Notes under the pieces: generated by a model | Database searches by the model: none | The model's input: only the letters and a program-made list of their open reading frames with translations | Told to the model about the DNA's origin: nothing | Shown here: positions 12,309 to 31,016 of the stretch, in pieces | Layout: every line of letters starts with the position of its first letter | Numbering within the stretch: position 1 is the first letter of the stretch | Translations under genes and position numbers: made by a program | Assembly (NCBI RefSeq): GCF_003627815.1 | Contig: NZ_CP032698.1 | Span: 1 to 64,000 of the forward strand | Source of the DNA: Streptomyces hundungensis | GTDB lineage: Bacteria > Actinomycetota > Actinomycetes > Streptomycetales > Streptomycetaceae | Direction of reading: 5' to 3' | Length of the DNA stretch: 64,000 nt

Positions 12309-12643
12309 ATGCCCCTCGTTCAGGACCACCTTCCTTTCGAGGACCTGCCGGAGGTGCCGACCGCGTCTCTTTGGTGCCAGCGATGGAACGCGGGTCAGCA
12401 CTCCTGGCAACACGTTCGGGACGGCGGCTTCGATGCCCGGCGCTACCGAGTGGACGTCATCCCCACGGCGCCCGCCAAGGCATTTGTGCTCGCGCACCAC
12501 TACTCCCGCTCATATCCAGCTGCGACGGTGCAGTTCGGCCTGTTCGACGTCGCTGGAGGCCAGTGCCGTCTGAGCGGTGTCGCGGCGTTCGGTGTTCCAG
12601 TCAGCAGGACTGTGCTCACCAAGCCTCTGCCGGAGCTGCGGCC
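12309..12643 (+). pseudogene. Mom-like DNA modification protein, N-terminal half
   Basis: From the ATG at 12309 (GGGGGA ribosome site) the protein reads MPLVQDHLPFEDL, VPTASLWCQRWNAGQHSW, AKAFVLAHHYSRSYPAA and VQFGLFDV, ending with LTKPLPELRP. This matches the N-terminal half of the actinobacterial Mom family, GNAT-fold enzymes that add a carbamoylmethyl group to adenine in DNA (known from phage Mu Mom). The family HxYS motif is present. At 12644 the frame enters the transposon and stops at 12665. The missing half is intact at 30455-31016. Rejoining gives a protein of about 298 aa with no frame change. Confidence 0.85.
12638..12643. other. Left 6-bp core at the transposon junction
   Basis: GCGGCC directly abuts the left terminal repeat. 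The counterpart GCGCCC abuts the right repeat at 30449-30454. Tn554-type elements recombine at a short core next to each end. Keeping either core after excision gives the amino-acid sequence ELRPYT across the junction of the Mom-like gene. Confidence 0.7.
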
Positions 12644-12654
12644 TTCTGCGCACC
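12644..12654 (+). repeat. Left terminal inverted repeat of the transposon
   Basis: TTCTGCGCACC is the exact reverse complement of GGTGCGCAGAA at 30438-30448. The 11-bp match ends at the same distance from a 6-bp core on each side, and the sequences inside the two repeats are otherwise unrelated. Confidence 0.85.
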
Positions 12655-12785
12655 CCTCGCACTGATCGACCCACTCGTACCGTTCCACGAAATCTCTCCT
12701 GTGAGGCAAAGTACGACATCCAGCATTGATCGACTCGCGCCCACAAGGTGGCCACCCTGAGTAGTCTCAGTGGTACATTCCGTAC

Positions 12786-13943
12786 GTGATCCTTGCTGGA
12801 GGGCTTCTCACCGAGCTCCTGAGGGTGGAGGTCGCCGACACGCTGGCCTACTGGACGGTCCTCTCGGGGCCGACCCTTGATGTCGTCGAGGACGTGGACG
12901 ACTTCCTTCGCCACTTGCGGTTCGGCCGGGCCCGCGAGGAATCGACGACGAAGACGTACGCCGGCCACCTCAGGCGCTTTCACGCCTGGTGCGAGGAGAA
13001 CACGCTCACGCGGTCAACCGCGGCCGTCGAACTGCCCCACTACGTCATGCAGTTGAGAACCACGCCACGGCGGACCAGTGGCCGCAACCAGGGGAAGACA
13101 CCACAGGACTCCACCCTCGCCCCCGCACTGGCGGCCGTGCACGGCCTGTACCTGCACCTCGCCGACATCGGGCAGGTGGACGAGACCGTGGTCGACGCCC
13201 TGTTCGTCACCGTGCCGCAGCCGCGGGGCGATGGGAGGCTCGTCCTCAAGCCGCGTCTGCGCGTGGACGCCCGGCCCAGCCATGGTTCGGGCCGGCCGCT
13301 GGCGGCCACTGCCGACGAGTTCGCCGCGCTTCTCGAGGCCGCCACGACGGCCCGGGACCGCTGCATGGTCGCCCTGCTCGGCGCGTGCGCCCTGCGGGTG
13401 GGTCAGCTCGTCTCTCTGCGCCGGGAGGATGTCCACCTCGTGCCGCCGGGGACCGTCATGCCCGGCTGCCCGTACGTGCTTGGTCCCCACCTTCACCTGA
13501 TGAAGCGCGACGGCCACCCACGGGGCGCGGCGAACAAGAACCGCAGCACCGTCATCGTGCCCGTGCCCGACCCGGTGACGATGCTCTACGCTGACTGGAT
13601 GCGCGAGCGGGCCACCATCCCCCACGCGCAGAGCAGTATCTGGGCCTTCGTGTCGTTCCCCGGGCCCACCGGTGAGCCCGGCGGCCAGGCCCTCGGTGCC
13701 CGGCGCGTCCAGGGCCTCCTCGCTGGCCTGGCACAAGACGCGCAGATCCGGCACGTCCATCCGCATATGGTGCGTCATCTCGTCGGCGAGACCGCAGCCG
13801 ACCTCGACATCGCGCGGGATGTTCTCCAGCGCCTGCTCGGCCACGACGACCCGCATAGCCAGGACGTCTACCGCAACGCTCCCGCGGCCAAGGTCGCCCA
13901 GGCGGCCCAAGCGGTCAACGACAAGCTCTACGGAGCGACATGA
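12786..13943 (+). CDS. tnpA: Tyrosine recombinase TnpA-like
   Basis: A 385-aa phage-integrase-fold recombinase. An N-terminal SAM-like core-binding domain (ESTTKTYAGHLRRFHAWCEE) is followed by the catalytic domain with ALRVGQLVSLRRED (first Arg), HPHMVRHLVGE at about 326-336 (H-x2-R), LLGHDDPHSQ (second His) and VYRN (tyrosine near 362). It would cut and rejoin the element ends. The GTG at 12786 is the first start after the left end; no strong ribosome site was seen. It overlaps tnpB by ATGA, and the trio is a single transcription unit. Confidence 0.88.
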   Translation: MILAGGLLTELLRVEVADTLAYWTVLSGPTLDVVEDVDDFLRHLRFGRAREESTTKTYAGHLRRFHAWCEENTLTRSTAAVELPHYVMQLRTTPRRTSGRNQGKTPQDSTLAPALAAVHGLYLHLADIGQVDETVVDALFVTVPQPRGDGRLVLKPRLRVDARPSHGSGRPLAATADEFAALLEAATTARDRCMVALLGACALRVGQLVSLRREDVHLVPPGTVMPGCPYVLGPHLHLMKRDGHPRGAANKNRSTVIVPVPDPVTMLYADWMRERATIPHAQSSIWAFVSFPGPTGEPGGQALGARRVQGLLAGLAQDAQIRHVHPHMVRHLVGETAADLDIARDVLQRLLGHDDPHSQDVYRNAPAAKVAQAAQAVNDKLYGAT

Positions 13944-16537
13944 CCGCCCCCGTCGTCTCACCACCGGGCTTGCCGCTGGACGTCGGGCCCGAGCCGGACT
14001 GGGACTACCTGGCCCTGCACGGCTTGGACCGCGCCGCGCTCCTGCTGCGCTTCCCGTTGGGAGTCGACTGGCACTCCCTGCGCTCGTGCCGGCATCCCGG
14101 CTGCGATCGCCCCGCTTCGAGTGCGCCCTGGCTGTGTCAGCGCTGCCTGGCCGGCTGGCGCCGGGCAGGAGCACCCGCCGACGTCGACGGCTGGTGCGTC
14201 GCCACGCCCGCGCCTCCCGTCCGGCGCACCTACGCCGAGCGCTGGTGCCGGGTGGGCTGCGAGCGCACGGCGGAGGCCAGCGGGCTGTGCAAGGGCTGTG
14301 CGCGCGAACGCCTGACACGGGGTCTGACCGTCGAGCAGTACCTTGCCAGTGGCGTCCGCCCCCGGCCGAGCTTCGGGCCGTGCCTGGTCCGTGTCTGCCC
14401 GCGCACCGCGGTGATGCGACGCACCCAGCTGTGCAACCCCCATCAGCGGCAGTGGTCCAAGGCTGGCCGACCCGAGCGCGGGGCCTGGGCGCTTACTGCG
14501 GCCGCGGTCTACACCGCCATCGACGAGGTCCCCCTCGGTGACCTGCCGCCCACGGTCGTCGTTCAGGTCCTGCGCGGCTACGAAGCCCAGCTGCGCCAAG
14601 GCGGTCGCATCTCGCCCGGGCAGATCAAGTCGGCGGTGCGCTGGCTGTGCGACCACGCGGTCAAGGACCTGGTCGACGCCGATCTGCCACCGAAGGGCGG
14701 CACGACCACCTACCTGCGGGTCTGGCAGCGGACCCTCCCGCTGCTGGACGCCGACCCGACAACGGAGCACACCCGGAGCCTTATCAGGCTGTCCGTCCTC
14801 AACCGCCGTTACAAGGGCGGCACCGTCGACCTCCGCGACGTCCAGGCGCCCTGGCTCACGCACCTCGCCCAGCAGTACGTGCTCCACCTCGCCGCCGCCG
14901 GCGCCTCCCCGGCCCGGCTGAACACTGTCGGCTACGCGGCGCGGTGGTTCGCGATGTTCCTGCGCACCCTGACCGGGGAGGGACGACGGCCCAGCGATGT
15001 CGGCCGCCTGGGCCTGCTCGCCTACCTTCGCTGGCTGGCCCAGCGGGCCCGCGACACCGACGACTACCGCCAGCTCGGCGACGGCGACCCGACACGGCCC
15101 GTGATCGCCGAGCGTCTCCTGCCCGCGCTTCAGGGCAAGGGGCCGTTGCTAGTCTCCCCGCAGCGGCACTGCCAGCTGGTCAGCACGCTGCGGGACATCC
15201 TCGAACACGGCCGCTCCTGGCTCGCCGAGAATCAGGCGGCCGACGTGCACCTGCTGGAGCGGGACGTCCCACCGTGGCCGGAGCGCGACGACACGGACAG
15301 CGAGCTGGAAGGCCGCTCCCAGGACGCCCTGCCGGAGACGGTCTTCCTCCAGCTGATGGACGAGCAGCATCTCGCACTACTCCCGGACGGTACCCGCCGC
15401 AACTACATCGAGCTGACCATGCGGGTGGGCCGGCGCCCGTGGGAGATCCGGCATCTGGAGTTCGACTGCCTCGAATGGCACGACCTCGACATCGAAGACC
15501 CCGACGGGACAGTGCGCCGCCGCTCCTATCCCTTCCTGGTGTACTGGATGCAGAAGGTCCGCCGGCGTCACAAACTCCCGCTCCACCCCAGCGACGCCGA
15601 GGTCATCACGCGCCAGCAGGAGTACCTGCGCGCCGCGTACCCACACCGGTTCACCAACCTGGGCCGGCCCCGCTTCGGGCGGATGCTGCTCTTCCCGACC
15701 CCGCGACTGTCCCGGGCCAACGCCTCCGGCGAGCGGCCCTACGACAGCAGCTCGGTCGGCTACTGGCTGGCGACCTGGCTCGACCAGGCCGACGTCCTCG
15801 ACGAGCACAACCAGCCCCTGGCTCCCGGGCGGGTGTTCGCCTACGCCTTCCGCCACACCTACGCCCAACTACGCGCTGATGCCGGCGTGCCGTTGGAGAT
15901 CCTCCAGGTCCTCATGGCTCACCAGGACCCCTCCACCACTCAGGTGTACTACCGGGTCTCCCACCCTCGGCGCATCCAGGCTGTACGCGCCATCGCAGCC
16001 AAGTTCCAGTTCGACCTCACCGGCGGCCGCATCCGCGCCCGCTCCCCGCAGGACGACCTCGCCGACCGCGTCCGGGCCGGCGTCGGCTCGGTCCCCGTTC
16101 CCGCCGGTCAGTGCCATGAGATGAACAACGTCCGCGCGGACGGCCGCGGCTGCCCGGTGTACTACCGCTGCTTCTCCTGCACCTTCTACACCACCGACTT
16201 CACCCACCTGCCCGAGCTGCGCCAACTGCGCGCCGGCAAGGCCGAACAGCTCGCCACGCTGGAAGCCGCCTACGGCAGTGCGCTCACACCCGGCCCCCTG
16301 ACCGCGACCAACCTCGACCTACTGCGCCTGGAGATCAAGCAGATCGACGAGCTCGTGGCCAAATGCGAGGCCGACATCGGATCGCTGACCCAGGACGAAC
16401 GCCGCACCGTGGAGTCCTGGCTCCACAGCAAGGACAAGTTGTTCACCGTCATCCCGGTGGCCGCGGTCCTGGCCGGCCGCCAACGCCTGCAACAGCCGAC
16501 CCTTGACCCGATCCTCCTGGGCGGAGCACCCTCATGA
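13940..16537 (+). CDS. tnpB: Large tyrosine recombinase TnpB-like
   Basis: This 865-aa recombinase is much longer than simple integrases, as expected for Tn554 TnpB-type proteins. The N-terminal 170 residues hold three cysteine clusters (GCDRPASSAPWLCQRCL, GCERTAEASGLCKGC, VCPRTAVMRRTQLCNPH), probably zinc fingers. The catalytic part has VGRRPWEIRHLEF (Arg near 494), FAYAFRHTYAQLRADAG (near 638), LMAHQDP and QVYYRVS (tyrosine). Another C-x2-C pair (YYRCFSCTFYTTDF) lies in the C-terminal region. The start overlaps tnpA and the end overlaps tnpC by ATGA, so all three should be made together. Confidence 0.88.
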   Translation: MTAPVVSPPGLPLDVGPEPDWDYLALHGLDRAALLLRFPLGVDWHSLRSCRHPGCDRPASSAPWLCQRCLAGWRRAGAPADVDGWCVATPAPPVRRTYAERWCRVGCERTAEASGLCKGCARERLTRGLTVEQYLASGVRPRPSFGPCLVRVCPRTAVMRRTQLCNPHQRQWSKAGRPERGAWALTAAAVYTAIDEVPLGDLPPTVVVQVLRGYEAQLRQGGRISPGQIKSAVRWLCDHAVKDLVDADLPPKGGTTTYLRVWQRTLPLLDADPTTEHTRSLIRLSVLNRRYKGGTVDLRDVQAPWLTHLAQQYVLHLAAAGASPARLNTVGYAARWFAMFLRTLTGEGRRPSDVGRLGLLAYLRWLAQRARDTDDYRQLGDGDPTRPVIAERLLPALQGKGPLLVSPQRHCQLVSTLRDILEHGRSWLAENQAADVHLLERDVPPWPERDDTDSELEGRSQDALPETVFLQLMDEQHLALLPDGTRRNYIELTMRVGRRPWEIRHLEFDCLEWHDLDIEDPDGTVRRRSYPFLVYWMQKVRRRHKLPLHPSDAEVITRQQEYLRAAYPHRFTNLGRPRFGRMLLFPTPRLSRANASGERPYDSSSVGYWLATWLDQADVLDEHNQPLAPGRVFAYAFRHTYAQLRADAGVPLEILQVLMAHQDPSTTQVYYRVSHPRRIQAVRAIAAKFQFDLTGGRIRARSPQDDLADRVRAGVGSVPVPAGQCHEMNNVRADGRGCPVYYRCFSCTFYTTDFTHLPELRQLRAGKAEQLATLEAAYGSALTPGPLTATNLDLLRLEIKQIDELVAKCEADIGSLTQDERRTVESWLHSKDKLFTVIPVAAVLAGRQRLQQPTLDPILLGGAPS

Positions 16538-17154
16538 CGCTCTCCGTTCCGCCCCAGAGCAGCCCCGCCCGCCGCACGACGGCCCTCGACGCCGGCCGAG
16601 CCGCCGCCGTGCAACGCCGCCGCGCCGACAGCGAGCAGTGCCGCCAGCGCGTCCTGGACGTCCTCACCGCGATGCGCAGGAACCACCAGAGCCTGTCGGA
16701 CGCGGAGATCACCCGGCGGGCCCGGGTCAACCCGCAGTACCTGCAGCGACACCGCGACCTGAAGGCGGAAGCGGAGGCCGTTCGCGCCCACCTCGTCGCC
16801 GACCGCCCGCGCGCGCAGGCCGCAGCCACCGCCGGCCGGGAGGCGGCGCTGACGGTGGAGAACCGCATGCTGCTCGCCCAGAACGCGGACCTGCGCCGTG
16901 AGCTGGAGACCATGCGAGCGGAGCTGCGTGCCATCCGCGCCCGAGACCTCGCCGCGAACGCCCGCGGCGACCTCGTCCCGCACCCGACGCGCGACACCGA
17001 GATCGAGGTGCTGCGTCGCGAACGGGACGATGCCCTGGCCGCGGTGCGGCGCGGAGAGGCGGATCTTCTTGCGCAGCGCAACGTCGTCCAACGCCTGATC
17101 GCCGAGAACACCCGGCTGATCGGCGGCGCAGTTCAGCCCCCGGAACGTCACTGA
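16534..17154 (+). CDS. tnpC: TnpC-like coiled-coil protein (DUF6262)
   Basis: This 206-aa protein has an N-terminal helical region that looks like a DNA-binding domain (SLSDAEITRRARVNPQYLQRH, of the AsnC/TetR-like HTH kind) and a long coiled coil from residue 85 to the end. It matches the small third gene that accompanies tandem tyrosine recombinases in Tn554-type elements (DUF6262 in actinobacteria, from memory). TnpC of Tn554 influences efficiency and orientation of transposition. ATGA overlap with tnpB. Confidence 0.8.
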   Translation: MTLSVPPQSSPARRTTALDAGRAAAVQRRRADSEQCRQRVLDVLTAMRRNHQSLSDAEITRRARVNPQYLQRHRDLKAEAEAVRAHLVADRPRAQAAATAGREAALTVENRMLLAQNADLRRELETMRAELRAIRARDLAANARGDLVPHPTRDTEIEVLRRERDDALAAVRRGEADLLAQRNVVQRLIAENTRLIGGAVQPPERH

Positions 17155-17705: not shown

Positions 17706-18554
17706 TCAGCTGCTGCTGGGCCGTGCGTCATCCCGGCGTCCTGCCGCGTGGAGGGAGCCGAGGAGTGCGAGGGAGTCGGCGCCGGTGCTGCCCGTCTCGG
17801 CGGTGCCGACAAGGAGGTACTGGCCGTCGGTGGCCTGCACGTCGAACGCCTGGTAGGTGAGGGTGATGCAGCCGACGTCGGGGTGATTGAAGACCTTGGT
17901 CTTGCGGCCCAGGCCGCTGACGCTGTGGTCCCGCCACAGCGCGGCGAACTCCGGGCTTTCGGCGATCAGTTCGCGCACTATCGCGGCGAGCTCGGGGTCG
18001 TGGCGGTCGTGTCCGGCGGCCAGGCGCAGTGCTTCGACGGTGTCGCGGGCGACGCTGTGCCAGTCGGCGAAGAGTTCGCGTGCCGCTGGGTCCTGGAAGA
18101 GGGAGCGCACCATGCGGTGGGGGTCGGCCAAGGGTGACAGCAGGGCGTCGGCGAGGGCGTTGGAGGCGAGGACGTCCAGGCGGCGGTTGATGACGTAGGC
18201 CACGGCGGTGGGGAAGGCGTCCATGAGCTGGAGGAGGGCGGGGTGCACCTGGTCGTGCGGGTGGGTGGGCGCCGACTCGGGCAGCAGGCCGGCCAGGCGG
18301 TAGGCGTGCCAGCGGGCGTCGATGCCAAGGCGCAGGGCGCCCGCGATGGCGTCGATCACCTGCCCGGAGGGGTTGGTCTCGCGGCCCTGCTCCAGCCGGG
18401 CGTAGTAGTCGGCGCTGACCCCGGCCAGGACAGCGACCTCCTCGCGCCGCAGGCCCGCGACCCGGCGGGAGCCGGAGGTGGGCAGGCCCACGTCGGCGGG
18501 CGTCACCTGGGAGCGGCGTGCCCGCAGGAACGCGCCCAGCTCGTGGCCACTCAT
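17706..18554 (-). CDS. XRE-family regulator with MmyB-like ligand domain
   Basis: 282 aa. The N-terminal HTH (GLRREEVAVLAGVSADYYARLEQ split over residues about 36-60) is the classic xenobiotic-response type. It is followed by the MmyB-like PAS-fold domain (YVINRRLDVLASNALADALL; RLAAGHDRHDPELAAIV; FNHPDVGCITLTYQAFDV). In Streptomyces such proteins commonly repress adjacent short-chain dehydrogenase or aldehyde dehydrogenase genes. It is divergent from the ALDH gene at 18867 across a 312-base spacer. Start chosen at ATG 18554, with an alternative ATG at 18563. Confidence 0.85.
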   Translation of the reverse strand: MSGHELGAFLRARRSQVTPADVGLPTSGSRRVAGLRREEVAVLAGVSADYYARLEQGRETNPSGQVIDAIAGALRLGIDARWHAYRLAGLLPESAPTHPHDQVHPALLQLMDAFPTAVAYVINRRLDVLASNALADALLSPLADPHRMVRSLFQDPAARELFADWHSVARDTVEALRLAAGHDRHDPELAAIVRELIAESPEFAALWRDHSVSGLGRKTKVFNHPDVGCITLTYQAFDVQATDGQYLLVGTAETGSTGADSLALLGSLHAAGRRDDARPSSS

Positions 18555-18704
18555 GCCTCGCATGGTACGCCGCTGCCCCAGCTTCGAGCGGTGGTGCACA
18601 CCGGGCCCGGCAGCCGGTGCGTCCCCGGCCCCGTGCCGGTGCCCCGTCGCCCAAGCCACCGGTTCCCCGGGTGCGGCTCGCACGGCCGCGGTGTGGTTCG
18701 AGCA

Positions 18705-18746
18705 CCTGTTCCTGGGTGCGGCACTCCTAGGCAGGCCCGGCCTTCC
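18705..18746 (-). promoter_or_regulatory. Conserved 42-bp element before the XRE and ALDH genes
   Basis: The complement of this stretch matches 22146-22186 at about four bases in five, including the uninterrupted CCGCACCCAGGAACAG. Both copies lie upstream of cargo genes (XRE/ALDH here, the SDR there). The simplest reading is a shared operator or promoter box for one of the XRE regulators. The rest of the 312-base spacer shows no gene. Confidence 0.5.
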
Positions 18747-18866
18747 TCGCGGGCGGCGAGGCGCCGATAGTCGATGGTGTGCCGGTCCGCGACCGCAGGA
18801 CACCGGGCCGGACGTCCGCCCTGAAGGCGGGCACACGCCACCGATCGTCGTGCCAGGAGAACCACC

Positions 18867-20309
18867 ATGGACACCAGTGTTTTCACCGACTTCACCATGA
18901 CCATCGCCGGCCGGGCGGTGGCGGGAGACACGTCCTACGAGGTCCTCGATCCGGCCGACGAGACGGTCGCGGCCAGGGCGCCGGTCTGCTCGCCCGAGCA
19001 GCTCGACCAAGCGGTAGCCGCGGCCAGGGCGGCCCTGCCCGGCTGGTCGGCGACGCCGTTGGAGGAGCGGCGCAAGCTCGTCCTGGCGGTCGCCGACGCC
19101 GTCGAGGCACAGCTCGAACCGCTCAAGCGGCTCCTCACCCGGGAGCAGGGAAAGCCGTTGGACGACGCCGCCGCGGAGATCCTCGGGTTCGGGTACTGGC
19201 TGCGGGGGACGGCGTCGCTGTCACTGCCGGAGACGGTGAACGAGGACAGCGCGGAGCGGCTCTCGGTGACCCGCCGGGTACCGCTGGGCGTGGTGGGCGC
19301 GATCGTGCCGTGGAACTACCCGCTGGGCAACGCGGGGTTCAAGCTCGCCCCGGCGCTGCTGGCGGGCAACACAGTGGTGTGGAAGCCGTCCCCGTTCACC
19401 CCGCTGGTCACGCTGAAGGTCGGCGAGCTGCTGCGCGAGGTGCTGCCGCCCGGTGTGCTGAACGTCGTCTCGGGCGGCGCCGAGCTCGGGCCGTGGATGA
19501 CCGCGCACCCCGGCATCGACATGATCAGCTACACCGGCTCCACCCGGACCGGCCGCCAGGTGATGGCCGGCGCGGCGCCGACGCTGACCCGGGTGACCCT
19601 GGAGCTGGGCGGCAACGATGCCGCGATCGTCCTGCCGGACGTCGACGTGCCCGCCGTCGCGGAGAAGCTGTTCTGGGGTGCCTTCGCCAACAGCGGCCAG
19701 GTGTGCCTGTCGATCAAGCGGCTGTACGTCCACCGCGAGGTCCACCAGCCGCTGCTGCGGGCGCTGGCCGCCTACGCCGCCACCGTGCGGGTCGGGCGCG
19801 GCACCGAGGCGGGGGTTCGGCTGGGCCCGGTGCAGAACCGCCCGCAGTACGAGCGGGTCCTCGACCTCCTCCAGGACTCCCACACCCGCGGCCACCGCTT
19901 CGCCGCCGGCGGCCGGCCCGGCGAAGGGCCGGGGTACTTCGTGGGGCCGACGCTCGTCGACGATCCCCCGGAGTCCTCGCGGATCGTCCAGGAGGAGCAG
20001 TTCGGGCCGGTCCTGCCGGTGCTCTCCTTCGACGACATCGAGGACGCCGTCACCCGGGCGAACGCGAGCGAGTACGGCCTGGGCGCCTCCGTCTGGTCGT
20101 CGGACCCGGAGGCAGCCCTGGCGGTCGGCCGGCGCCTGCGAGCCGGCACGGTGTGGATCAACGAGGTCCAGCACCTCACCCCGCTGGTCACCTTCGCGGG
20201 CCACAAGCAGTCCGGGCTCGGCTCGGAGAGCGGAACCGAGGGCCTGCTGGAGTACACCGCGCCCCAGACCGTGACCCTCCGCCGCACCGCCCCTGCCGCC
20301 GCGGCCTGA
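18867..20309 (+). CDS. NAD(P)-dependent aldehyde dehydrogenase
   Basis: 480 aa, normal for the family. Catalytic features are all present: PWNYP with Asn about 150, the general base in ELGGNDA (Glu about 246), the nucleophile in SGQVCLS (Cys about 280) and EQFGPVLPV near 380. It should oxidise an aldehyde to the acid with NAD(P)+; the substrate is unknown. The ATG at 18867 follows CCAGGAG. It opens a three-gene plus-strand run with two NTF2-like proteins and faces the XRE regulator, which probably controls it. Confidence 0.92.
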   Translation: MDTSVFTDFTMTIAGRAVAGDTSYEVLDPADETVAARAPVCSPEQLDQAVAAARAALPGWSATPLEERRKLVLAVADAVEAQLEPLKRLLTREQGKPLDDAAAEILGFGYWLRGTASLSLPETVNEDSAERLSVTRRVPLGVVGAIVPWNYPLGNAGFKLAPALLAGNTVVWKPSPFTPLVTLKVGELLREVLPPGVLNVVSGGAELGPWMTAHPGIDMISYTGSTRTGRQVMAGAAPTLTRVTLELGGNDAAIVLPDVDVPAVAEKLFWGAFANSGQVCLSIKRLYVHREVHQPLLRALAAYAATVRVGRGTEAGVRLGPVQNRPQYERVLDLLQDSHTRGHRFAAGGRPGEGPGYFVGPTLVDDPPESSRIVQEEQFGPVLPVLSFDDIEDAVTRANASEYGLGASVWSSDPEAALAVGRRLRAGTVWINEVQHLTPLVTFAGHKQSGLGSESGTEGLLEYTAPQTVTLRRTAPAAAA

Positions 20310-20344
20310 GCCCGGCCGTGAACCACCGACGAAGGAGGCTGCCG

Positions 20345-20701
20345 ATGCCGACCGAACAGCAGGTCGACGACTGGGTCAAGGCGTATGTGCGGGCCTGGCG
20401 CAGCAACGCGCCCGAGGACATCGCGGCCCTGTTCTCCGCCGGGGCGGAGTACCACGAGTGGCCGTACGAGACCGACTGGATCGGCCGCGAGGAGATCGTC
20501 AAGGGCTGGCGGTCCCGGGAGGCGTGGCAGCAGGGCGGCTGGGGCTTCGAGTGGTCCGTCCTCGTGATCAACGGCGACACGGCCGCGATCAAGGGCACCG
20601 GCGTCTACAAGGAGCTGGGCACCTTCGCCAACCTCTGGACGGTGACCTTCGACGACCAGGGCAGCTGCGCGATGTTCCGGATGTGGAACAACCAGGTCTG
20701 A
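20345..20701 (+). CDS. NTF2-like / SnoaL-type protein, 118 aa
   Basis: The short alpha+beta cone-fold pattern is clear: VKAYVRAWRSNAPEDIAALF, then YHEWPYETDWIGREEIVKGW, and a beta-rich end (LWTVTFDDQGSCAMFRMWNNQ). NTF2-like proteins act as small-molecule isomerases, dehydratases or binding proteins. The ATG at 20345 has an excellent GAAGGAGG site 36 bases after the ALDH stop, so it is in the same operon. Confidence 0.8.
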   Translation: MPTEQQVDDWVKAYVRAWRSNAPEDIAALFSAGAEYHEWPYETDWIGREEIVKGWRSREAWQQGGWGFEWSVLVINGDTAAIKGTGVYKELGTFANLWTVTFDDQGSCAMFRMWNNQV

Positions 20702-20777
20702 CGCGGCGCGGACGACAAGCGGCACGACCGCCGGCCGGTGGCCGCGCCGGGATTCGGAAGGCACGAGGAGCGAGACG

Positions 20778-21233: not shown

Positions 21234-21246
21234 CAGCCCCGGCGGA

Positions 21247-22186: not shown

Positions 22187-22240
22187 CCCGTGAAGGTCAT
22201 CGGCTGGGCGGCGCCGGCCGGGTGAACCGCCTCCAAAAGG

Positions 22241-22304: not shown

Positions 22305-22370
22305 TCGCTAGTTGCGTGCTGCTGCCGGGAGCTCCCCGGCTACTGCCGCCCTGTAGGCGAGGAGCGTGTC

Positions 22371-23855: not shown

Positions 23856-23883
23856 AGACCGCCCGTTCGAAGGAGTCACGGAC

Positions 23884-25161
23884 ATGTCCGCTCCCGCCTC
23901 CCGCCCCACCCTCGTCCGCCAGGCCGCCGTCTTCGACGGCACCCGCCTCCACCCCGCCCGTGACGTGCTGATCGAGGGCCCGCTGATCACCGCCGTCGGC
24001 GACGCCCTGCCGCTGCCCGAGGGCGCACACGTCGTCGACGGAACCGGCCGCACCCTCCTCCCCGGCCTGATCGACGCGCACACCCACGCCACCGACGCCG
24101 GGCAGCTGCGCCAGTCCCTGCTGTTCGGGGTCACCACCGAACTCGACATGGGCGGCGCACCCGCCACCGCCCGCCGCCTGCGGGCCGCCGCCGGCGGCCG
24201 GGACGACCTCGCCGACCTGCGCGTCGCCACCACCGGCGCCACCGCCCCCGGCGGACACCCCCACCAACTGGTCGAGACCGGCCTGCTCGAACCCTTCCCC
24301 ACCGTCGCCCGATGGCAGGACACCGACGCCTTCGTCGCGGCCCGGGTCGCCGAAGGCGCCGACCACCTCAAGATCTTCATCGAGGACGGCACCGCCATCG
24401 GCCACCCGATGCCGCTGATGTCCGCGCAGACCGTCACCGCCCTGGTGCGCGCCGCCCACGAACGCGGCCTGCGCACCGTCGCCCACACCCTCACCCGCAC
24501 CGCCGCCCGCCAGGCCATCGACTGCGGCATCGACGGCCTCGCCCACGCCCCCGCCGACGGCCACAGCAGCGACGACCTGATCGAAGCCGCCGCCGCACAC
24601 GGCGTCTTCGTCGTCCCCACCCTGACCGCCCTCACCGGCATGACCCCCACCCCGGCCGAGTACGCACTCGCCGACGACCCCCGGCTGCGCCCCTACGCCG
24701 ACCCGCGATGGCTCGACGAACTCGACCGCATCCGCACCACCGACCCGGCGCAGCGGGTCGGCCCGATCAGCATGGACCCGGCCCACGCCGCCGACGCCGC
24801 TCTGCGCATGTTCCGCCTCGGCGTCCCCCTGCTGGCCGGCACCGACGGCACCGGCGGGATGGGCCACCCCACCACCCACGGCATCAGCTACCACGGCGAA
24901 CTCGCCCTGCTGGTGGCCGCCGGGCTCACCCCCGCCCAGGTGCTGACCGCCGCCACCGCCGCGCCGGCCGACGCCTTCGCCCTCGCCGACCGGGGCCGCA
25001 TCGCCCCGGGCCTGCGCGCCGACCTGCTCCTCGTCGAGGGCGACCCCACCCACGACATCACCGCCCTGCGCGCCGTCACCCACCTGTGGCGCCGCGGCGT
25101 CCCCGTCGACCGCCCCGCCCTCGCCACCACCGGTGCCGGTGCCGCAGAGATCCGGAGCTGA
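23884..25161 (+). CDS. Imidazolonepropionase-like amidohydrolase
   Basis: 425 aa metal-dependent hydrolase. The HxH pair is in IDAHTHATDAG (His 66 and 68), the bridging lysine in DHLKIFIEDG, further metal ligands in TVAHTLTR and GLAHAPAD, and the catalytic Asp in LAGTDGTGGMG. N- and C-terminal strands form the small composite beta-sandwich. It probably cleaves a C-N bond in a ring or amide of the compound handled by this operon. The ATG at 23884 has GAAGGAG upstream, 28 bases after the monooxygenase stop. Confidence 0.88.
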   Translation: MSAPASRPTLVRQAAVFDGTRLHPARDVLIEGPLITAVGDALPLPEGAHVVDGTGRTLLPGLIDAHTHATDAGQLRQSLLFGVTTELDMGGAPATARRLRAAAGGRDDLADLRVATTGATAPGGHPHQLVETGLLEPFPTVARWQDTDAFVAARVAEGADHLKIFIEDGTAIGHPMPLMSAQTVTALVRAAHERGLRTVAHTLTRTAARQAIDCGIDGLAHAPADGHSSDDLIEAAAAHGVFVVPTLTALTGMTPTPAEYALADDPRLRPYADPRWLDELDRIRTTDPAQRVGPISMDPAHAADAALRMFRLGVPLLAGTDGTGGMGHPTTHGISYHGELALLVAAGLTPAQVLTAATAAPADAFALADRGRIAPGLRADLLLVEGDPTHDITALRAVTHLWRRGVPVDRPALATTGAGAAEIRS

Positions 25162-25163
25162 CC

Positions 25164-25661
25164 ATGAACCCCACCGCCACCACCCCGCCCTACGCGGGCA
25201 TCCACCACCTCAAGCTGCCGGTCACCGACCTGGACCGCAGCACCCGCTGGTACACCGCAGTCCTCGGCGCCCGCCGCATCGAGGCACTCGACCACCACCA
25301 CCCCGACGGCACCCTGTTCGCCGTCATCCTCGACACCCCCGGCCTGGGCACCCACCTCGAACTGCGCCTCGACCCGGCGACCTGCGCCGCCCTGAACGGC
25401 TACGACTTCCTCACCCTGGCCGTCGACGACCGCACCGCCCTCGACCGCTGGACCGCCCACCTCGACGCCCTCGGCGTCCCGCACTCACCGCCGGTCGTCG
25501 CCCTGGCCGGCTGGCTCCTCGTCGTCCCCGACCCCGACGGGCTGCGACTGCGCCTCTACACCAACGCGCCGCACGGCCTGGGCCCCGAGCACGTCGAGTA
25601 CGACTCGCCCTGGCTCGCGCCCGCCGCGCCGGGCCCGGTGCCGGTGAGCGCCGTTCCCTGA
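25164..25661 (+). CDS. VOC / glyoxalase-like protein
   Basis: 165 aa with two VOC modules: IHHLKLPVTDLDRSTRWYTAVLGA at the start and FLTLAVDDRTALDRWTAHLDALG, ending with VPDPDGLRLRLYTN. Possible metal ligands are the first-module His and the two acidic residues near each module end. Members are dioxygenases, glyoxalases or antibiotic-binding resistance proteins. It starts two bases after the amidohydrolase stop and is therefore coupled to it. The operon ends at the hairpin at 25675. Confidence 0.85.
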   Translation: MNPTATTPPYAGIHHLKLPVTDLDRSTRWYTAVLGARRIEALDHHHPDGTLFAVILDTPGLGTHLELRLDPATCAALNGYDFLTLAVDDRTALDRWTAHLDALGVPHSPPVVALAGWLLVVPDPDGLRLRLYTNAPHGLGPEHVEYDSPWLAPAAPGPVPVSAVP

Positions 25662-25674
25662 CCCTGCGGGACCG

Positions 25675-25719
25675 ACCGCCTGCGGCAGTACGCGCCGCGC
25701 TCGCTGTGCCGCAGGCGGT
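25675..25719. terminator. Operon terminator hairpin
   Basis: ACCGCCTGCGGCA (25675-25687) and TGCCGCAGGCGGT (25707-25719) form a perfect 13-bp stem with a 19-base loop, 14 bases after the VOC stop. The following 200 bases before the convergent TetR gene show no convincing gene. Confidence 0.75.
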
Positions 25720-25936
25720 GAAAGGACCCTCGGGCGAGGGCTTCGGCGCGTCTCCTGGTGCACATCAACGCCCATACGGCATCAGCGAGCTCGCCCGGAT
25801 CGGCGGAGGGGTGGGGCTGCCGTCGGTCGAGGAGGGCGCCGCCAGGTGCTACCCGCGTGAGATGCCAGGGTCTCATCCTGGCCAGGCGGCCGGAACCTCC
25901 CATCCCCGCCCGACAGCCGGCGGATCCGCAGGACTG

Positions 25937-26563
25937 CTACAGCCCGTCGCCGTCCTGACCCTGGGGGAATGCCGAGGCGAGGGCCGACAGGCCCTCGACC
26001 ATGCGGTCCACCGAGACCGGGTCCACCAGGTAGCGGCCGACCAGCAGCCCCGGCATCAGGGATGTCAGCACCGATGCCACCGCCTCCGTGTCCGCCTGCG
26101 GCCCGAGCCGCCCCTCCTCCCGCCACCGCCCAGCCAGCTCGGTGAGACTGCCGCGCACGTCCAGGTAGAACGAACGGGTCCGCTCCGCCAGCTCCGGCGT
26201 GCGCAGTGCCTCCCCCCACGCCTGGATGGCGATGCGCCGCAGGTCGTCACCCTGCTCCGGGGCGCGGTCGCGCAGCTCGGCCACCATCGCGGCCACGACC
26301 TGGGCCGGCGACGGGGTGGGGCGTTGCTCCAACAGCCCGCTGAACAGGTTGCGGACCAGGGCCAGGGATTCGTCAGCGGCGGCCAGGATGAGGTCGTCCT
26401 TGCTGCGGAAGTACCGGTACACCGCACTGGAGGACATGCCGGTCGCGGTGATCACGTCGTCCATCGACGTGGCGTGGAATCCGTCGCGGGAGAAGCAGCG
26501 CCAGGCACTGGTGAGGATGTGGCGCCGCCGCTCCTCCCGGGTCTCGTCACTCAGTCGGGGCAT
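25937..26563 (-). CDS. TetR-family repressor
   Basis: 208 aa. The N-terminal HTH is typical (RRRHILTSAWRCFSRDGFHATSMDDVI, split over residues 12-38, then GMSSSAVYRYFRSKDDLI); the C-terminal domain is all-helical and would bind ligand. Start ATG 26563; a GTG three codons upstream is possible. Immediately upstream lie AAACG/CGTTT arms that recur before the monooxygenase operon, so it most likely represses both that operon and itself and is released by the substrate. Confidence 0.88.
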   Translation of the reverse strand: MPRLSDETREERRRHILTSAWRCFSRDGFHATSMDDVITATGMSSSAVYRYFRSKDDLILAAADESLALVRNLFSGLLEQRPTPSPAQVVAAMVAELRDRAPEQGDDLRRIAIQAWGEALRTPELAERTRSFYLDVRGSLTELAGRWREEGRLGPQADTEAVASVLTSLMPGLLVGRYLVDPVSVDRMVEGLSALASAFPQGQDGDGL

Positions 26564-26575
26564 ACCCCACACCCT

Positions 26576-26600
26576 AAACGAAAACGGATGTTCTCGTTTT
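26576..26600. promoter_or_regulatory. AAACG/CGTTT operator before the TetR gene
   Basis: AAACG repeats at 26576-26580 and 26582-26586, and CGTTTT lies at 26595-26600, making an imperfect palindrome 13 bases upstream of the TetR start. The half-sites match those at 22241-22304. Confidence 0.55.
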
Positions 26601-26650
26601 GGGTTCGGTGGGGTCGACGGTCCAGGCCCGCTGGAGCCTGAGAGAGCTCG

Positions 26651-27553
26651 TCACCGGCTGTGGTGCATGTCCGTGGTGTGGTCGTCCGGTCCGGTGGTGG
26701 GGGTCGCCGACCACTGGAGGAGGAAGCGCAGTGCCTCCTCGGATGGCGAGTCCGGTGGGGCCGTGTAGGCGACGAGTTGCTGGTCGGGCTGTGTGTCGAC
26801 GGAGAACTGCTGGACGTCGAGGGTCACCGTGCCGACGACCGGGTGGCGGTAGGTCTTGGTGAGCTGCCTGGGACCGCGTACCTGGTGGCTTTCCCACCAG
26901 GCGCGGAAGTCCGCATCCCGGGCAGTGAGTTCGCCGACCAGGGCGGCCAGTGCCCGGTCGTCGGGGTTGCGTCCGGCCTCCATCCGCAGGACCGCGACGC
27001 ACTCGCGGGCAGCGCGTGGCCAGTCGGCGTACAGGGACCGGTAGGCGTCGTCGAGGAAGGTCAGCCGGATCAGGTTGCGCTCACCGGCGGGCAGCGCGGC
27101 GAAGTCGGCCAGCAGGGCTGCCGCGCCCCGGTTCCAGGCCAGCACGTCCATGCGGCGGTTGAGGATCATGGCGGGGATGTCGTGCATGCCGTCGAGCAGT
27201 CGGCGCAGCTTCGGGTCGACGTGCCGTCCGGCGGGCCGCCGGGCGGAGGCGGCCTGCGTGACGTCGGCGACGGTGAACAGGTACGCGCGTTCGTCCGGGG
27301 CGAGTTGCAGTGCGTCGGCGAGGGCGTCCAGGACCGGGCGGGAGACCCGGCGGGTCCGGCCCTGCTCCAACCGCACGACGTAGTCGATGCTCACGTGCGC
27401 GAGCTGGGCCAGTTCCTCCCGGCGCAGGCCCGGGACCCGGCGCAGGCGGCCGTCGTCGGGCAGGCCGGCGCGGTGCGGGTCGAGGGCGGCGCGGCGGGCG
27501 CGCAGGAAGTCGCCCAGTTCATTGCCGCCCGGAGGGGTGCCGGGGTTTTCCAT
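26651..27553 (-). CDS. XRE-family regulator with MmyB-like ligand domain
   Basis: 300 aa, the second protein of this type in the transposon. HTH: GLRREELAQLAHVSIDYVVRL (residues about 42-62, quoted in part). Ligand domain: ILNRRMDVLAWNRGAAALLADF, RLTFLDDAYRSLYADWP and YRHPVVGTVTLDVQQFSVD. Start at ATG 27553. It is divergent from the hydrolase at 27718 with a 164-base spacer and probably regulates it. Confidence 0.85.
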   Translation of the reverse strand: MENPGTPPGGNELGDFLRARRAALDPHRAGLPDDGRLRRVPGLRREELAQLAHVSIDYVVRLEQGRTRRVSRPVLDALADALQLAPDERAYLFTVADVTQAASARRPAGRHVDPKLRRLLDGMHDIPAMILNRRMDVLAWNRGAAALLADFAALPAGERNLIRLTFLDDAYRSLYADWPRAARECVAVLRMEAGRNPDDRALAALVGELTARDADFRAWWESHQVRGPRQLTKTYRHPVVGTVTLDVQQFSVDTQPDQQLVAYTAPPDSPSEEALRFLLQWSATPTTGPDDHTTDMHHSR

Positions 27554-27717
27554 GGCTCCCAGTGTCCGCGAAGCGCCGGCCGCGTGCCTGGTACTGGTCT
27601 GCACAGGCACAGTCCTCCCTGGCACCCCGGAGCGGACGGAGCGACGGTGGGAACGTGGCCGGCGCACCCCGACGCGGTCACCGGAGCCCGCCCCCTGTGT
27701 GACCGGAGAGCACCAGC

Positions 27718-28641
27718 ATGAAGACGGATGTCACCTTCCCCAGCGCCGGCCTGAAGCTTGCCGGCCACCTCCACACCCTCGACGGCGAAGCCGACGGCCC
27801 CCGCCCGGCCGTCGTGGTGGGGCATCCCGGCGGCGGTGTGAAGGAACAGACCGCGGGCCTGTACGCGCGGCGCCTGGCCGAGCATGGCTTCGTCGCCCTC
27901 GCCTTCGACGCCGCCCACCAAGGCGAGAGCGAGGGCGTTCCGCGCGGCCTGGAAGACCCGGCCCACCGGGTGGAGGACATCAAGGCCGCGGTTTCCTTCC
28001 TCACCACCCGTGAGGAGGTCGACCCCGACCGCATCGGGGCACTGGGCATCTGCGCCTCCGGCGGGTACGTGCTTCCCGCCGCCGCCACCGACCACCGCAT
28101 CAGGGCCGTCGGCACCGTCAGCGCCGTCGACATCGCCCGCCAGTTCCGCCTGGGCGCCGACGGCGCGCAGGACCCCGCCGTCATCCAGGGCATGCTCGAC
28201 GCCGCCGCAGCCGCGCGTACCGCCGAAGCCCACGGCGAAGGTGTCCCGAGCTTCCAGCTCTTCCCCGACACCGCCGAGCAGGCCCGCGCCCTGGGCGGCC
28301 GACACGGCTTCGAGGGCTTCGAGTACTACCGCACCGACCGCGCCCGGCACCCACGCTCGGCGACGTCCCTCACCTGGTCCAGCGTCGACCGCATGACCAC
28401 CTTCGACGCCTTCGGCTTCGTCGACCTGATCGCGCCCCGCCCGCTACTGATGATCGTCGGAAGCGAAGCGGTGACGTCCTGGATGGCCGTTCAGGCGTTC
28501 CAGCGCGCTCGCAGCCCCAAGGAACTGCACTGGATCGACGGAGCCAGCCACGTCGACCTCTACGACAAGGAGCAGTACGTCGGCCCCGCGGTCTCGAGGC
28601 TCAGCGACTTCTTCGAGACCCACCTGGCCAAAACCGCGTAG
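27718..28641 (+). CDS. Alpha/beta hydrolase (dienelactone-hydrolase-like)
   Basis: 307 aa. The oxyanion region is VVGHPGGGVKEQTAG (about 34-48), the nucleophile elbow GICASGGY (110-117), and the catalytic His is in GASHVDLY near residue 279. The elbow has Cys and Ser at alternative nucleophile positions, as in DLH and YcjY-like enzymes. It may open lactone or ester products of the oxidative cargo enzymes. The ATG at 27718 has a GGAG site nine bases upstream. Divergent from an XRE gene, with the EthD-like gene following. Confidence 0.85.
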   Translation: MKTDVTFPSAGLKLAGHLHTLDGEADGPRPAVVVGHPGGGVKEQTAGLYARRLAEHGFVALAFDAAHQGESEGVPRGLEDPAHRVEDIKAAVSFLTTREEVDPDRIGALGICASGGYVLPAAATDHRIRAVGTVSAVDIARQFRLGADGAQDPAVIQGMLDAAAAARTAEAHGEGVPSFQLFPDTAEQARALGGRHGFEGFEYYRTDRARHPRSATSLTWSSVDRMTTFDAFGFVDLIAPRPLLMIVGSEAVTSWMAVQAFQRARSPKELHWIDGASHVDLYDKEQYVGPAVSRLSDFFETHLAKTA

Positions 28642-28894
28642 ACGGGCGGACCCGGCACCTCCGACCGGCGAGACGCTGCCAGGCGGGCCCGCCGATGATC
28701 GCGGTGCGGTGCTTTACGGTCATGGGTAAGGGCACCGGGCGCCATACGGAGCGCGGCGCCCTTGCAGTCTGTGGACCGTGACCTTCGGCAGGAATGGGAA
28801 GTGCACGGTGTTGCGGATGCGGAGCAACGGGGTCTGGCATCGCGGCTGTGATGACATGGCCCGAGCCACCAGGTGTGCCGCGAAAGGACCGTCC

Positions 28895-29227
28895 GTGATC
28901 ACTCTGCTCACCGTGATCCGCAAGAAGCCCGAGGTCTCGACCGAGGACTTCCGCCACTTCATGAAGAACGAATACGGGCCGATCTACGAGGCGCTCCCGC
29001 AGACCCGTGCCTACGTCCAGTACCACCTGACCGACCTCGCCTCCGACGGTGCGGAGGACCAGATCGACGCCATCGTGCAGATCAGCTTCGAGTCGCATGA
29101 GGCGATGGCCGAGGCGCTCTCGACCGACGCGTACAAAAAGGCCCATGAGCTGCGCCAGCAGTACATGCGCGAGACTTCCGTCGGAATCCACTCGACACGC
29201 GTTGACGAGACCGTCACCTTCGTGTGA
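28895..29227 (+). CDS. EthD-like dimeric barrel protein
   Basis: 110 aa: MITLLTVIRKKPEVSTEDFR, FMKNEYGPIYEALPQTRAY and the ending HSTRVDETVTFV fit the EthD/ferredoxin-like barrel, found in ring-cleaving or decarboxylating helper proteins and polyketide cyclases. The GTG at 28895 follows GAAAGGACC. It lies 254 bases after the hydrolase and may have its own promoter. Confidence 0.75.
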   Translation: MITLLTVIRKKPEVSTEDFRHFMKNEYGPIYEALPQTRAYVQYHLTDLASDGAEDQIDAIVQISFESHEAMAEALSTDAYKKAHELRQQYMRETSVGIHSTRVDETVTFV

Positions 29228-29978: not shown

Positions 29979-30437
29979 GTGCTGGACCTCTCACTGCCGG
30001 AGGGGGACCTCGTCGGCCCCCGAAGTGCGCTGGCAGCAACGAGTCTGGGCGAGCAGCTGGCTGCCGATGGTCAGGCACGACCGTGAGAACCCGAACGAGG
30101 TACGTAGCAGCAAGGATTGCCCTCACGAGCAGCTTTGGGCAGCAGTCAGCACCCACACGGCGGGAGCGTGCTCGGGGGCACTGAGGAATACGGCACCTCA
30201 GTCTCCCCCGTTGAGGCTCACGACTAGGGATTCCGATCAGGCGCTGAGGTCGACTTCGGCAAGGCGCGGATCGTTCCGCTGGCTAGACGCTCAGGTGGTC
30301 CTAGTGGGTGCCTTCACTGGCGCCGCCCTCGATCGCGGTCAGGCACCGAGCAGGTCACTGCCGCCAACCTGCTCCAGTCACTCAACGCATCGACTCATTG
30401 GTCACACGCAAGGTGACTTGGAGGGATTGCCCCCGTC
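29979..30437. other. Right-end region of the transposon, no gene seen
   Basis: About 460 bases between the secreted-protein gene and the right terminal repeat. There is no credible open frame. The region is less GC-biased in codon position than its neighbours, as expected for non-coding DNA, and would hold recombinase sites near the end. Confidence 0.5.
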
Positions 30438-30448
30438 GGTGCGCAGAA
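30438..30448 (-). repeat. Right terminal inverted repeat of the transposon
   Basis: GGTGCGCAGAA is the exact complement of the left repeat at 12644-12654. It is followed by the 6-bp core GCGCCC (30449-30454) and then by the resumed Mom-like gene. Confidence 0.85.
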
Positions 30449-30454
30449 GCGCCC
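30449..30454. other. Right 6-bp core at the transposon junction
   Basis: GCGCCC differs from the left core GCGGCC at one position. If the element leaves with one core, the gene reads CTG CGG CCC TAC or CTG CGC CCC TAC, both Leu-Arg-Pro-Tyr. Confidence 0.7.
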
Positions 30455-31016
30455 CTACACCGAATCTCTGGAGTGCTCGCGCTTCGTGCTGCTGAATGAG
30501 TGCCCGGGCAATACCGAGAGCTGGTTCCTGGCCCGCTGCTTCGATGCCCTGCTCGCCAATGGGGTGCGGGGCATCGTCTCGTTCGCCGACCCCGTCCCAC
30601 GGCGGACCGCCTCCGGAGACCTGGTCATGCCCGGGCACGTGGGGACGATCTATGCGGCGGCGAACGCCCTGTATACCGGGCGGGCAACCGCACGAACGGT
30701 GAAGCTCCTGCCAGACGGCACTGTTTTCCACGCGCGGACGGCGCAGAAGATCCGTCGCCGGGAGCAGGGCCACAAGTACGCCGAGGCGCAGCTCCGCGCG
30801 CTCGGTGCTCCGCGGCCGCGACCGGGCTGCGACCCAGCCGTGTGGTTGCGCGAGGCCCTCGCCGCAGTGGGCGCGCACAATGTCCGCCACCGCGGTGCGC
30901 ACCGCTACGTCTTTCAGCTCGGCAGAACCCGCCGTGAGCGGGAGGACATCAAGGTCGACGTCCCCGTGCTTCGCCCCTACCCCAAGCAACCCGATCCCGA
31001 GCCGACGGTCCGCTGA
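30455..31016 (+). pseudogene. Mom-like DNA modification protein, C-terminal half
   Basis: It resumes in the exact frame of 12309-12643: YTESLECSRFVLLNECPGN, TESWFLARCFDALLANGVRG, VSFADPVPRRTASGD, MPGHVGTIYAAANALYTGR, then a basic region (KIRRREQGHKYAEAQ) and the C-terminal RPYPKQPDP. This is the conserved C-terminal half of the actinobacterial Mom family, including the SF(A/S)DPVPR segment. Alone it has no ribosome site and lacks the N-terminal acetyltransferase-fold strands, so no active protein is expected while the transposon is present. Confidence 0.85.

What the first reader, a model, noticed from the sequence alone, without database searches (positions are those of the whole stretch)
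12309..31016. Tn554-like transposon splits a Mom-like DNA modification gene and should excise without a scar in the protein
The sequence shows perfect 11-bp inverted repeats at 12644-12654 and 30438-30448, 6-bp cores GCGGCC and GCGCCC outside them, and two halves of one protein family flanking them in the same frame. Removing 12644-30454 or 12638-30448 gives Leu-Arg-Pro-Tyr across the junction either way. Tn554 is known to enter fixed sites using TnpA/B/C; here the target would be a Mom-type gene. If excision occurs, the host element could switch DNA modification on and off.
Basis: partly seen in the sequence, partly recalled or inferred. Interest (0 to 1): 0.92.

Follow-up and report, generated by a model that had tools for sequence, protein, structure and literature searches.

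The report
Transposon that docks inside Mom genes
A jumping DNA element in a Streptomyces-type bacterium sits at one exact codon of a gene for chemically modifying DNA, and most of its traceable relatives in other strains sit at that same codon of related genes, so this gene is their regular docking site; that it jumps out again and switches the gene back on has not been shown.

Summary
A 17,805-bp tnpABC transposon (12644-30448) with perfect 11-bp inverted ends splits one Mom-family gene at Arg111. Of the 120 best Mom homologues, 118 run gaplessly over the site. Of 18 elements with related transposases (window included), 11 have both ends in a Mom gene at this codon, 1 has its only traceable end there, 1 keeps a short Mom-like remnant, 1 lies elsewhere, 4 gave no usable ends. 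Near-identical transposases sit in dissimilar Mom genes, so insertion recurred. A natural pair, S. liliifuscus (empty) and S. longwoodensis (occupied), shows the left 6-bp core is the target's own and the right core is foreign, as described for Tn554 and SE elements. Excision is unproven: SEs circularise without freeing the site, and for Tn554 this was unexamined (PMC10214605, passages). An IS110 also separates this Mom start from its upstream gene, so on/off switching is doubtful here. Mom is also split at other codons by a second Tn554-like lineage (type III-B CRISPR genes inside) and by an integrase element. New, as far as searched: Mom as attachment gene, the ends, convergent docking.

The parts
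12309..12643 (+). 5' half of the split Mom-family gene (residues 1-111 and part of 112)
   Evidence: Pfam Mom PF25680 positions 2-57; aligns to intact Mom genes up to the junction
12638..12643 (+). left 6-bp core GCGGCC (third base of Leu110, Arg111, two bases of Pro112); by the rule the target's own sequence
12644..12654 (+). left terminal 11-bp inverted repeat TTCTGCGCACC, first bases of the element
12666..12674 (+). left copy of a subterminal direct repeat (TCGACCCAC; consensus TCGACT-AC over 13 left ends)
12786..13943 (+). tnpA, tyrosine recombinase, 385 aa, only match of its kind in the genome
   Evidence: PF00589 E 2e-16; R197, H320, R323, H346, Y355 invariant in alignment A2 of three proteins (numbers are those of its first row; the catalytic reading is recalled)
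13940..16537 (+). tnpB, long tyrosine recombinase, 865 aa, overlapping tnpA by 4 nt
   Evidence: PF00589 E 2e-6; the eight best plasmid records are 65-78% identical
16534..17154 (+). tnpC, 206 aa, overlapping tnpB by 4 nt
   Evidence: no Pfam hit at 1e-3; a 48-75% identical partner follows tnpB in relatives
17706..29227 (.). cargo: HTH regulator, aldehyde dehydrogenase, two SnoaL-like proteins, short-chain dehydrogenase, FAD monooxygenase, amidohydrolase, TetR, MmyB-type regulator, dienelactone-hydrolase-like protein; looks catabolic
   Evidence: Pfam on nine of the ORFs; first HTH gene from the annotation under a match; ORFs at about 25.1-25.9 and 28.7-30.4 kb were not scanned
30390..30397 (+). 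right copy of the subterminal direct repeat (TCGACTCA)
30438..30448 (+). right terminal 11-bp inverted repeat GGTGCGCAGAA, last bases of the element
30449..30454 (+). right 6-bp core GCGCCC, by the rule the footprint brought from an earlier site
30449..31016 (+). 3' half of the split Mom-family gene (open from GTG 30486; homology starts at the core)
   Evidence: PF25680 positions 76-190; four best plasmid matches 80-86% identical
10758..12290 (-). IS110-family insertion (transposase 10820-12097) between the DUF6248-like gene and the Mom start; outer edges approximate
   Evidence: NF033542 E 1e-67; comparison with L082
8349..10836 (+). upstream host-replicon genes (8349-9581, about 9587-10288, DUF6248-like 10237-10836), syntenic with the plasmid Mom locus L082
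31085..32116 (+). downstream host-replicon gene, also next to Mom in plasmid loci L080 and L081 (its counterpart in L103 is annotated phosphoadenosine phosphosulfate reductase)
   Evidence: no Pfam hit

Best explanation
The window holds a member of a lineage of Tn554-type transposons whose attachment site is a fixed place in Mom-family DNA-modification genes, the codons for Leu-X-Pro in the loop before a core beta-strand. Shown: the ends, the target codon and its repeated use, and, in one natural pair, no target duplication, a native left core and a foreign right core. Inferred: TnpA and TnpB bind the 11-bp arms either side of a 6-bp crossover region; a circle that carries the six bases from its old left flank inserts into a new Mom gene, where those six end up at the right end and the new gene's own six at the left end; cargo rides along; Mom is cut in two and inactivated. 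Whether the donor site is freed (true excision, which would rebuild Mom) or kept (copy-out) is unresolved; copy-out is at least as likely.
For: 118 of the 120 best Mom homologues continuous over +-15 residues of the site. Of 18 distinct elements with related transposases, 11 have both ends in a Mom gene at this codon. Right-end pattern found in 6 of 394 genomes, 0 for the pattern read backwards; 5 of the 6 continue as Mom by profile (starting at profile position 132-133), the sixth (G366) by eye for 18 residues only; the pattern itself contains eight Mom-side positions. Natural pair: flanks 98.7% over 780 bp and 99.65% over 4,571 bp, empty core GGAGCC, occupied cores GGAGCC left and CATGCC right. 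TnpB and target identity uncorrelated over 45 pairs of 10 elements (r 0.05); of 10 pairs with TnpB at least 90% identical, 8 have Mom flanks (42 residues) under 55% identical. None of the 25 distant TnpA relatives fetched has Mom beside it. AlphaFold model of an intact Mom (P0001), pLDDT 88.7, puts the codon in a loop between strands 80-88 and 109-117; best solved match is phage Mu Mom.
Against: S. griseoruber carries the same ends outside Mom, and no Mom match was found in that genome, so specificity is strong, not absolute. In the window the RIGHT core GCGCCC, not the left, equals the core of the closest intact genes L080 and L081, so which core is native here cannot be told from a one-base difference. 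S. musisoli has halves from two Mom types, pointing to rearrangement or misassembly. No movement has been seen. The 18 elements are not all independent: L075 with L076, and L077 with L085, share both transposase (96-97%) and target type (90-95%). The footprint rule rests on one pair.
Confidence: 0.93

Rival explanations
1. Reversible switch: the element excises cleanly often enough to rebuild Mom and turn DNA modification on and off.
For: Both possible removals keep the frame and even the amino acid in this window; near-identical plasmids exist with and without an element; GInts, which resemble this group, gave restored empty sites by nested PCR in some strains (PMC5385486, passages).
Against: SE elements with the same 6-bp footprint make circles with no empty site (PMC10214605, passages). 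The empty/occupied pair is equally explained by insertion. In other elements removal through the right core would change the middle codon (for example L062, L075, L076). IS110 separates this Mom from its upstream gene. Several target genes are broken at further places too.
Confidence: 0.12
2. One ancient insertion inherited with Mom, not repeated insertion at a fixed site.
For: Two element pairs share target type as well as transposase (L075 and L076; L077 and L085).
Against: Left and right Mom halves match the same Mom type in 10 of 11 elements, and the matched genes differ widely between elements (for L079 this rests on 45 and 18 residues, since its frame is lost after that). Of 10 pairs with TnpB at least 90% identical, 8 have Mom flanks under 55% identical. 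A 99%-identical empty site exists.
Confidence: 0.03
3. Dead remnant: the element once moved but is now fixed, with Mom decaying.
For: Right ends without a near transposase exist (G237; L105; G089 and G366); G188 has a frameshifted tnpA; no second copy in this genome.
Against: In the window all three tnp genes are open with overlapping starts, the conserved recombinase residues are kept, the two 11-bp ends are perfect, and both Mom halves are open up to the junction.
Confidence: 0.2

Closest known systems
Tn554-related actinobacterial transposons with one long and one normal tyrosine recombinase plus, in many, a TnpC (Van Houdt 2012, PMC3414803; passages and section 10 read)
   Same: Same three-gene layout, similar sizes; the window's TnpB matches a place on pRHL3 of R. 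jostii (NC_008271, 29% over 93%), a record that the paper lists.
   Different: That section names no target gene for these elements; here target, ends, core and subterminal repeats are defined. Naming: the paper likens the short protein to Tn554 TnpB and the long one to TnpA; I call the short first gene tnpA and the long one tnpB, by order and by recalled Tn554 sizes.
Tn554 of Staphylococcus (att554 in radC recalled; passages on the family in PMC10214605)
   Same: tnpABC, one fixed site, no target duplication, 6 bp of the left side of the old site carried to the right side of the new one.
   Different: Target is Mom, not radC; ends carry a perfect 11-bp repeat in this copy, while the Tn554 ends are called imperfect repeats there.
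[quoted passage not shown]
   Same: One ordinary and one large recombinase, 6-bp spacer, attL/attR core rule.
   Different: SEs have four core genes including tfp; only three are here. They were found in Gammaproteobacteria.
GInts and RIT elements (PMC5385486 passages; PMC3414803 passages)
   Same: Clusters of tyrosine recombinases, site preference.
   Different: GInts have four genes, RITs three recombinases; here the third gene is a TnpC type.

Membership tests
Tn554-related actinobacterial class | adjacent same-strand genes: normal-size tyrosine recombinase, abnormally long one, TnpC-like third gene | tested here: met
   385, 865 and 206 aa, 4-nt overlaps; the paper gives 611-828 aa for the long one, so 865 is slightly above; that the third gene is a TnpC rests on its place and on weak similarity to a DUF6262 third gene (30%, E 3e-4)
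Tn554-related actinobacterial class | sequence relation to listed members | tested here: met
   TnpB to a place on pRHL3 NC_008271, E 2e-53 (record listed in the table)
Tn554-related actinobacterial class | direct similarity to TnpA, TnpB, TnpC of Tn554 itself | not tested
   Tn554 proteins were not fetched
Tn554-type transposition | fixed insertion site | tested here: met
   11 of 18 elements with both ends at one Mom codon; one exception outside Mom
Tn554-type transposition | no target duplication; old left 6 bp appear at the new right end | tested here: met
   shown for one natural pair: left core native, right core foreign; the donor itself was not seen, so the second half is only consistent
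Tn554-type transposition | demonstrated movement needing tnpA, tnpB, tnpC | not testable with these tools
   needs the bench
Tn554 sensu stricto | att554 in radC as target | tested here: not met
   target is Mom; the radC target itself is recalled
SE elements | four core genes intA, tfp, intB, srap | tested here: not met
   three genes only, tnpB follows tnpA directly
RIT elements | three catalytic tyrosine recombinases | tested here: not met
   third gene has no recombinase domain hit
Mom family (target gene) | PF25680 profile and Mom fold | tested here: met
   both halves above the Pfam cut-off; intact relative modelled, best PDB match Mu Mom 8bv8, E 7e-9
Mom family (target gene) | DNA-modifying activity | not testable with these tools
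   no call shows activity for these Streptomyces proteins; some homologues bear the NCBI name 'Mom family adenine methylcarbamoylation protein'

The most novel reading that the evidence does not exclude
Mom genes of Streptomyces plasmids and chromosome ends are a convergent docking hub: at least three recombinase systems (this Tn554-type lineage at Leu-X-Pro, a second Tn554-type lineage about 40 codons upstream carrying type III-B CRISPR genes, and a single-integrase element further downstream) each use their own codon of the same DNA-modification gene. The arrival and departure of mobile elements would then set whether a plasmid carries modified DNA, which could change its fate under restriction.
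Probability: 0.3. Interest if true: 0.82.

Novelty: new variant of a known kind. Interest (0 to 1): 0.62.

Why it matters
It gives the actinobacterial Tn554-like class a defined target, defined ends and a natural empty/occupied pair, so the open question whether this kind of element leaves an empty site can be tested directly. It also shows that a gene expected (from phage Mu Mom, recalled) to protect DNA from restriction is the landing place of several mobile element families, which bears on how linear plasmids and chromosome ends of Streptomyces gain cargo (mercury resistance, CRISPR, catabolic genes) and may lose DNA modification.

Tried and rejected
Genome scan with TnpA alone found nothing; the TnpB alignment then gave nine loci. 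A DNA search of the left Mom half in 61 genomes (own included) found only the window itself and three short matches of 25-39 bases, so these 60 relatives do not share the gene. Circle-junction patterns gave nothing in viral contigs or 394 genomes; assemblies rarely hold circles, so this says little. The cargo had no close match among plasmids (at most 14% covered). Phage records gave only Mom proteins under 60% identity (19 records), so I found no support for a phage origin of this copy. PDB by sequence found no relative of P0001, although the fold search did. Considered and rejected: RIT or SE membership (gene number), one inherited insertion, chance repeats. A first identity comparison (11 elements, r 0.15 and 0.02, 19 of 24 pairs) had faults: the left stretch of S. 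musisoli ran through a frameshift and TnpB pieces were strung together; one search repeats it without that element and with single pieces, and I cite. Selection to know: the scans for ends kept candidates with CC (or TA further on) beside the repeat, which favours the GNNNCC form of the core. L078 (left end not found), L086 (contig cut on the left, right side read only to the fetched flank), L090 and L091 (partial transposase) are among the 18 but gave no usable ends. Loci with right ends but no near transposase (G237, L105, G089, G366) are not among the 18.
Full report
Observation. The two 11-bp ends are exact reverse complements at the stated places, with 6-bp cores GCGGCC (12638-12643) and GCGCCC (30449-30454) outside them. 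The element is 17,805 bp, 12644-30448. The left core covers the last base of Leu110, the Arg111 codon and two bases of Pro112. Both halves match the Pfam Mom family in the right order (positions 2-57, then 76-190). The genome is one contig of 8.39 Mb and the window is its first 64 kb. Only one TnpA match is present in it.

The target gene is one gene. A search with an intact relative (L082) gave 1,722 proteins at E up to 1e-3, of which the best 120 are listed; 118 of these 120 align without a gap over 15 residues each side of the site, 2 have a one-column gap there, none fails to span it. Some bear the NCBI name Mom family adenine methylcarbamoylation protein. A model of intact P0001 (pLDDT 88.7, pTM 0.83) places the codon in a loop between strands 80-88 and 109-117, and the best solved match is the phage Mu Mom structure 8bv8. 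Cutting there separates strands of one fold, so neither half should work alone (inference).

The transposon. TnpA 385 aa and TnpB 865 aa carry the phage-integrase domain; TnpC is 206 aa without a Pfam hit. Stop and start codons overlap by 4 nt. The residues expected for tyrosine recombinases are kept in alignments of relatives (the catalytic reading is recalled). The cargo looks catabolic and has no close plasmid match.

Relatives. From plasmids (140 records with any TnpB match, the eight best at 65-78%), sampled genomes of the same family (108 of 394 with any TnpA match, five of them, the window included, at 65% identity or more) and GTDB genomes (nine loci) I assembled 18 distinct elements with near transposases, the window included. 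Both ends lie in a Mom gene at this codon in 11: the window, S. musisoli (L061/L071), Kitasatospora NBC_00374 (L062), strain ITFR-21 (L063), S. avidinii (L075), S. longwoodensis (L076), S. europaeiscabiei (L077), NBC_01455 (L079), S. anulatus (L084/L095), S. mexicanus (L085/L096), OfavH-34-F (L088). In S. filamentosus (L083) only the right end was found, in Mom. G188 is degraded, with a nine-residue Mom-like stretch at its right end, judged by eye. S. griseoruber (L087/L097) has both ends outside Mom and no Mom match in its genome. L078, L086, L090, L091 gave no usable ends. Ten elements measured in one piece are 7.1 to 18.1 kb (this includes the degraded G188 at 12.2 kb); the S. mexicanus element spans about 49 kb by contig coordinates. 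Cargo differs where annotated, for example merA and merB in S. longwoodensis.

Independent check. A pattern made of the right end plus eight Mom-side positions hit 6 of 394 genomes; the same pattern read backwards hit none. Five of the six continue as Mom by profile from position 132-133; the sixth, G366, reads Mom-like by eye for 18 residues and then changes. Three of the six genomes (G237, G089, G366) have no TnpA match of 65% or more, so their ends look like remnants (inference).

Ends. Aligned left ends (13) and right ends (16) are conserved inward from the repeat, and a second shared motif, TCGACTCAC-like, lies in direct orientation; in the window it starts 22 bp from the left tip and ends 51 bp from the right tip. 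The core is not fixed: 10 of 13 left cores and 10 of 16 right cores read GNNNCC; the other right cores are TGGCCT, CATGCC, CCAGCC, CCAACC and TGCTCC twice. The scans that found the ends favoured CC at that place.

Footprint. S. liliifuscus ZYC-3 (L098) is an almost identical empty version of the S. longwoodensis site (98.7% over 780 bp, 99.65% over 4,571 bp). Its core is GGAGCC, the same as the occupied left core; the occupied right core is CATGCC. This is the rule that Idola and colleagues give for SEs and note for Tn554 (PMC10214605, passages). In the window itself the test is not decisive: intact L080 and L081 have GCGCCC, equal to the right core, and G237 (L066) has CCGGCC. The right core of the remnant in G089 is GCGGCC, equal to the window's left core; with so few bases this may be chance.

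Repeated insertion. Best matches of the left and right halves belong to the same Mom type in 10 of 11 two-ended elements; S. musisoli is a chimera. Over 45 pairs of the other 10 elements, TnpB identity and target identity (42 residues beside the site) are uncorrelated, r 0.05; of 10 pairs with TnpB at least 90% identical, 8 have target flanks under 55% identical, and the other 2 (L075 with L076, L077 with L085) have 90-95%. None of the 25 distant TnpA relatives fetched (L036-L060, about 30-38% identical) has Mom within up to 1.5 kb each side of tnpA; other distant matches were not fetched.

Other docking in Mom. In S. anthocyanicus NBC_01372 (L107) Mom is split about 40 codons upstream by a different tnpABC set (TnpB 26% identical; third gene DUF6262) whose interval carries type III-B CRISPR genes; NBC_01668 (L103), NBC_01455 (L079) and S. 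europaeiscabiei (L077) show a break at the same place. In pFRL4 (L106) an insert of about 13.3 kb with a single integrase and an HTH gene sits further downstream, and its flanks are 99.8-99.9% identical to empty L098. Similar 3' breaks with an integrase gene beside them appear in AM 4-1-1 and S. clavuligerus pSCL3. End sequences of these other elements were not worked out.

Function here. In relative L082 the Mom start overlaps the end of the DUF6248 gene; in the window an IS110 lies between them. Excision could rebuild the reading frame, but expression would still depend on a promoter past the IS. I give true on/off switching 0.12.

Literature. Searches of the open library for Tn554 with radC or Streptomyces, Mom protein, Mom family with Streptomyces, Tn554 excision and circles, mom gene with linear plasmid, and methylcarbamoyl with Mom showed no title or abstract start that links a Tn554-like element to a Mom gene. 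Of the listed papers I saw passages of six (PMC3414803, with its section 10; PMC8407400; PMC10214605; PMC5385486; PMC8138268; PMC7843796) and only the listing of the rest. Subscription papers are mostly not held there.

Noticed in passing
L107 (NZ_CP109573), L103, L079, L077: A second Tn554-like lineage interrupts Mom about 40 codons upstream of this site; in S. anthocyanicus NBC_01372 it carries type III-B CRISPR genes.
   Followed up: partly
L106 pFRL4 against L098; also L101, L102: A single-integrase element with an HTH gene splits Mom further downstream; about 13.3 kb insert with 99.8-99.9% identical flanks to the empty plasmid.
   Followed up: partly
L077 27946-37565; L114 (G366): A further break in Mom about 20 codons after the Leu-X-Pro site; in L077 a tyrosine recombinase and HTH gene lie inside the gap.
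   Followed up: no
L061 and L071 (S. musisoli): The Mom halves flanking this element come from two different Mom types, as if plasmid arms had been exchanged through the element, or a misassembly.
   Followed up: no
L081 11319-16134: The gene downstream of Mom is itself split by an insert with two tyrosine recombinase genes.
   Followed up: no
window 10758-12290: IS110 between the DUF6248-like gene and Mom; edges approximate.
   Followed up: partly
window 4661-10677 and 30449-34225: Patchy synteny with Streptomyces linear plasmids (L080, L081, L082), so this chromosome end may be plasmid-derived.
   Followed up: partly
P0087: A 304-aa protein from the jgi source joins an MmyB-type ligand domain (PF17765) to a Mom domain.
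   Followed up: no
window 53061-54866 and 59970-61403: Zeta-toxin-like and Fic-domain genes.
   Followed up: no
L085 to L096 (S. mexicanus): The element there spans about 49 kb, larger than the others measured; cargo not read.
   Followed up: no
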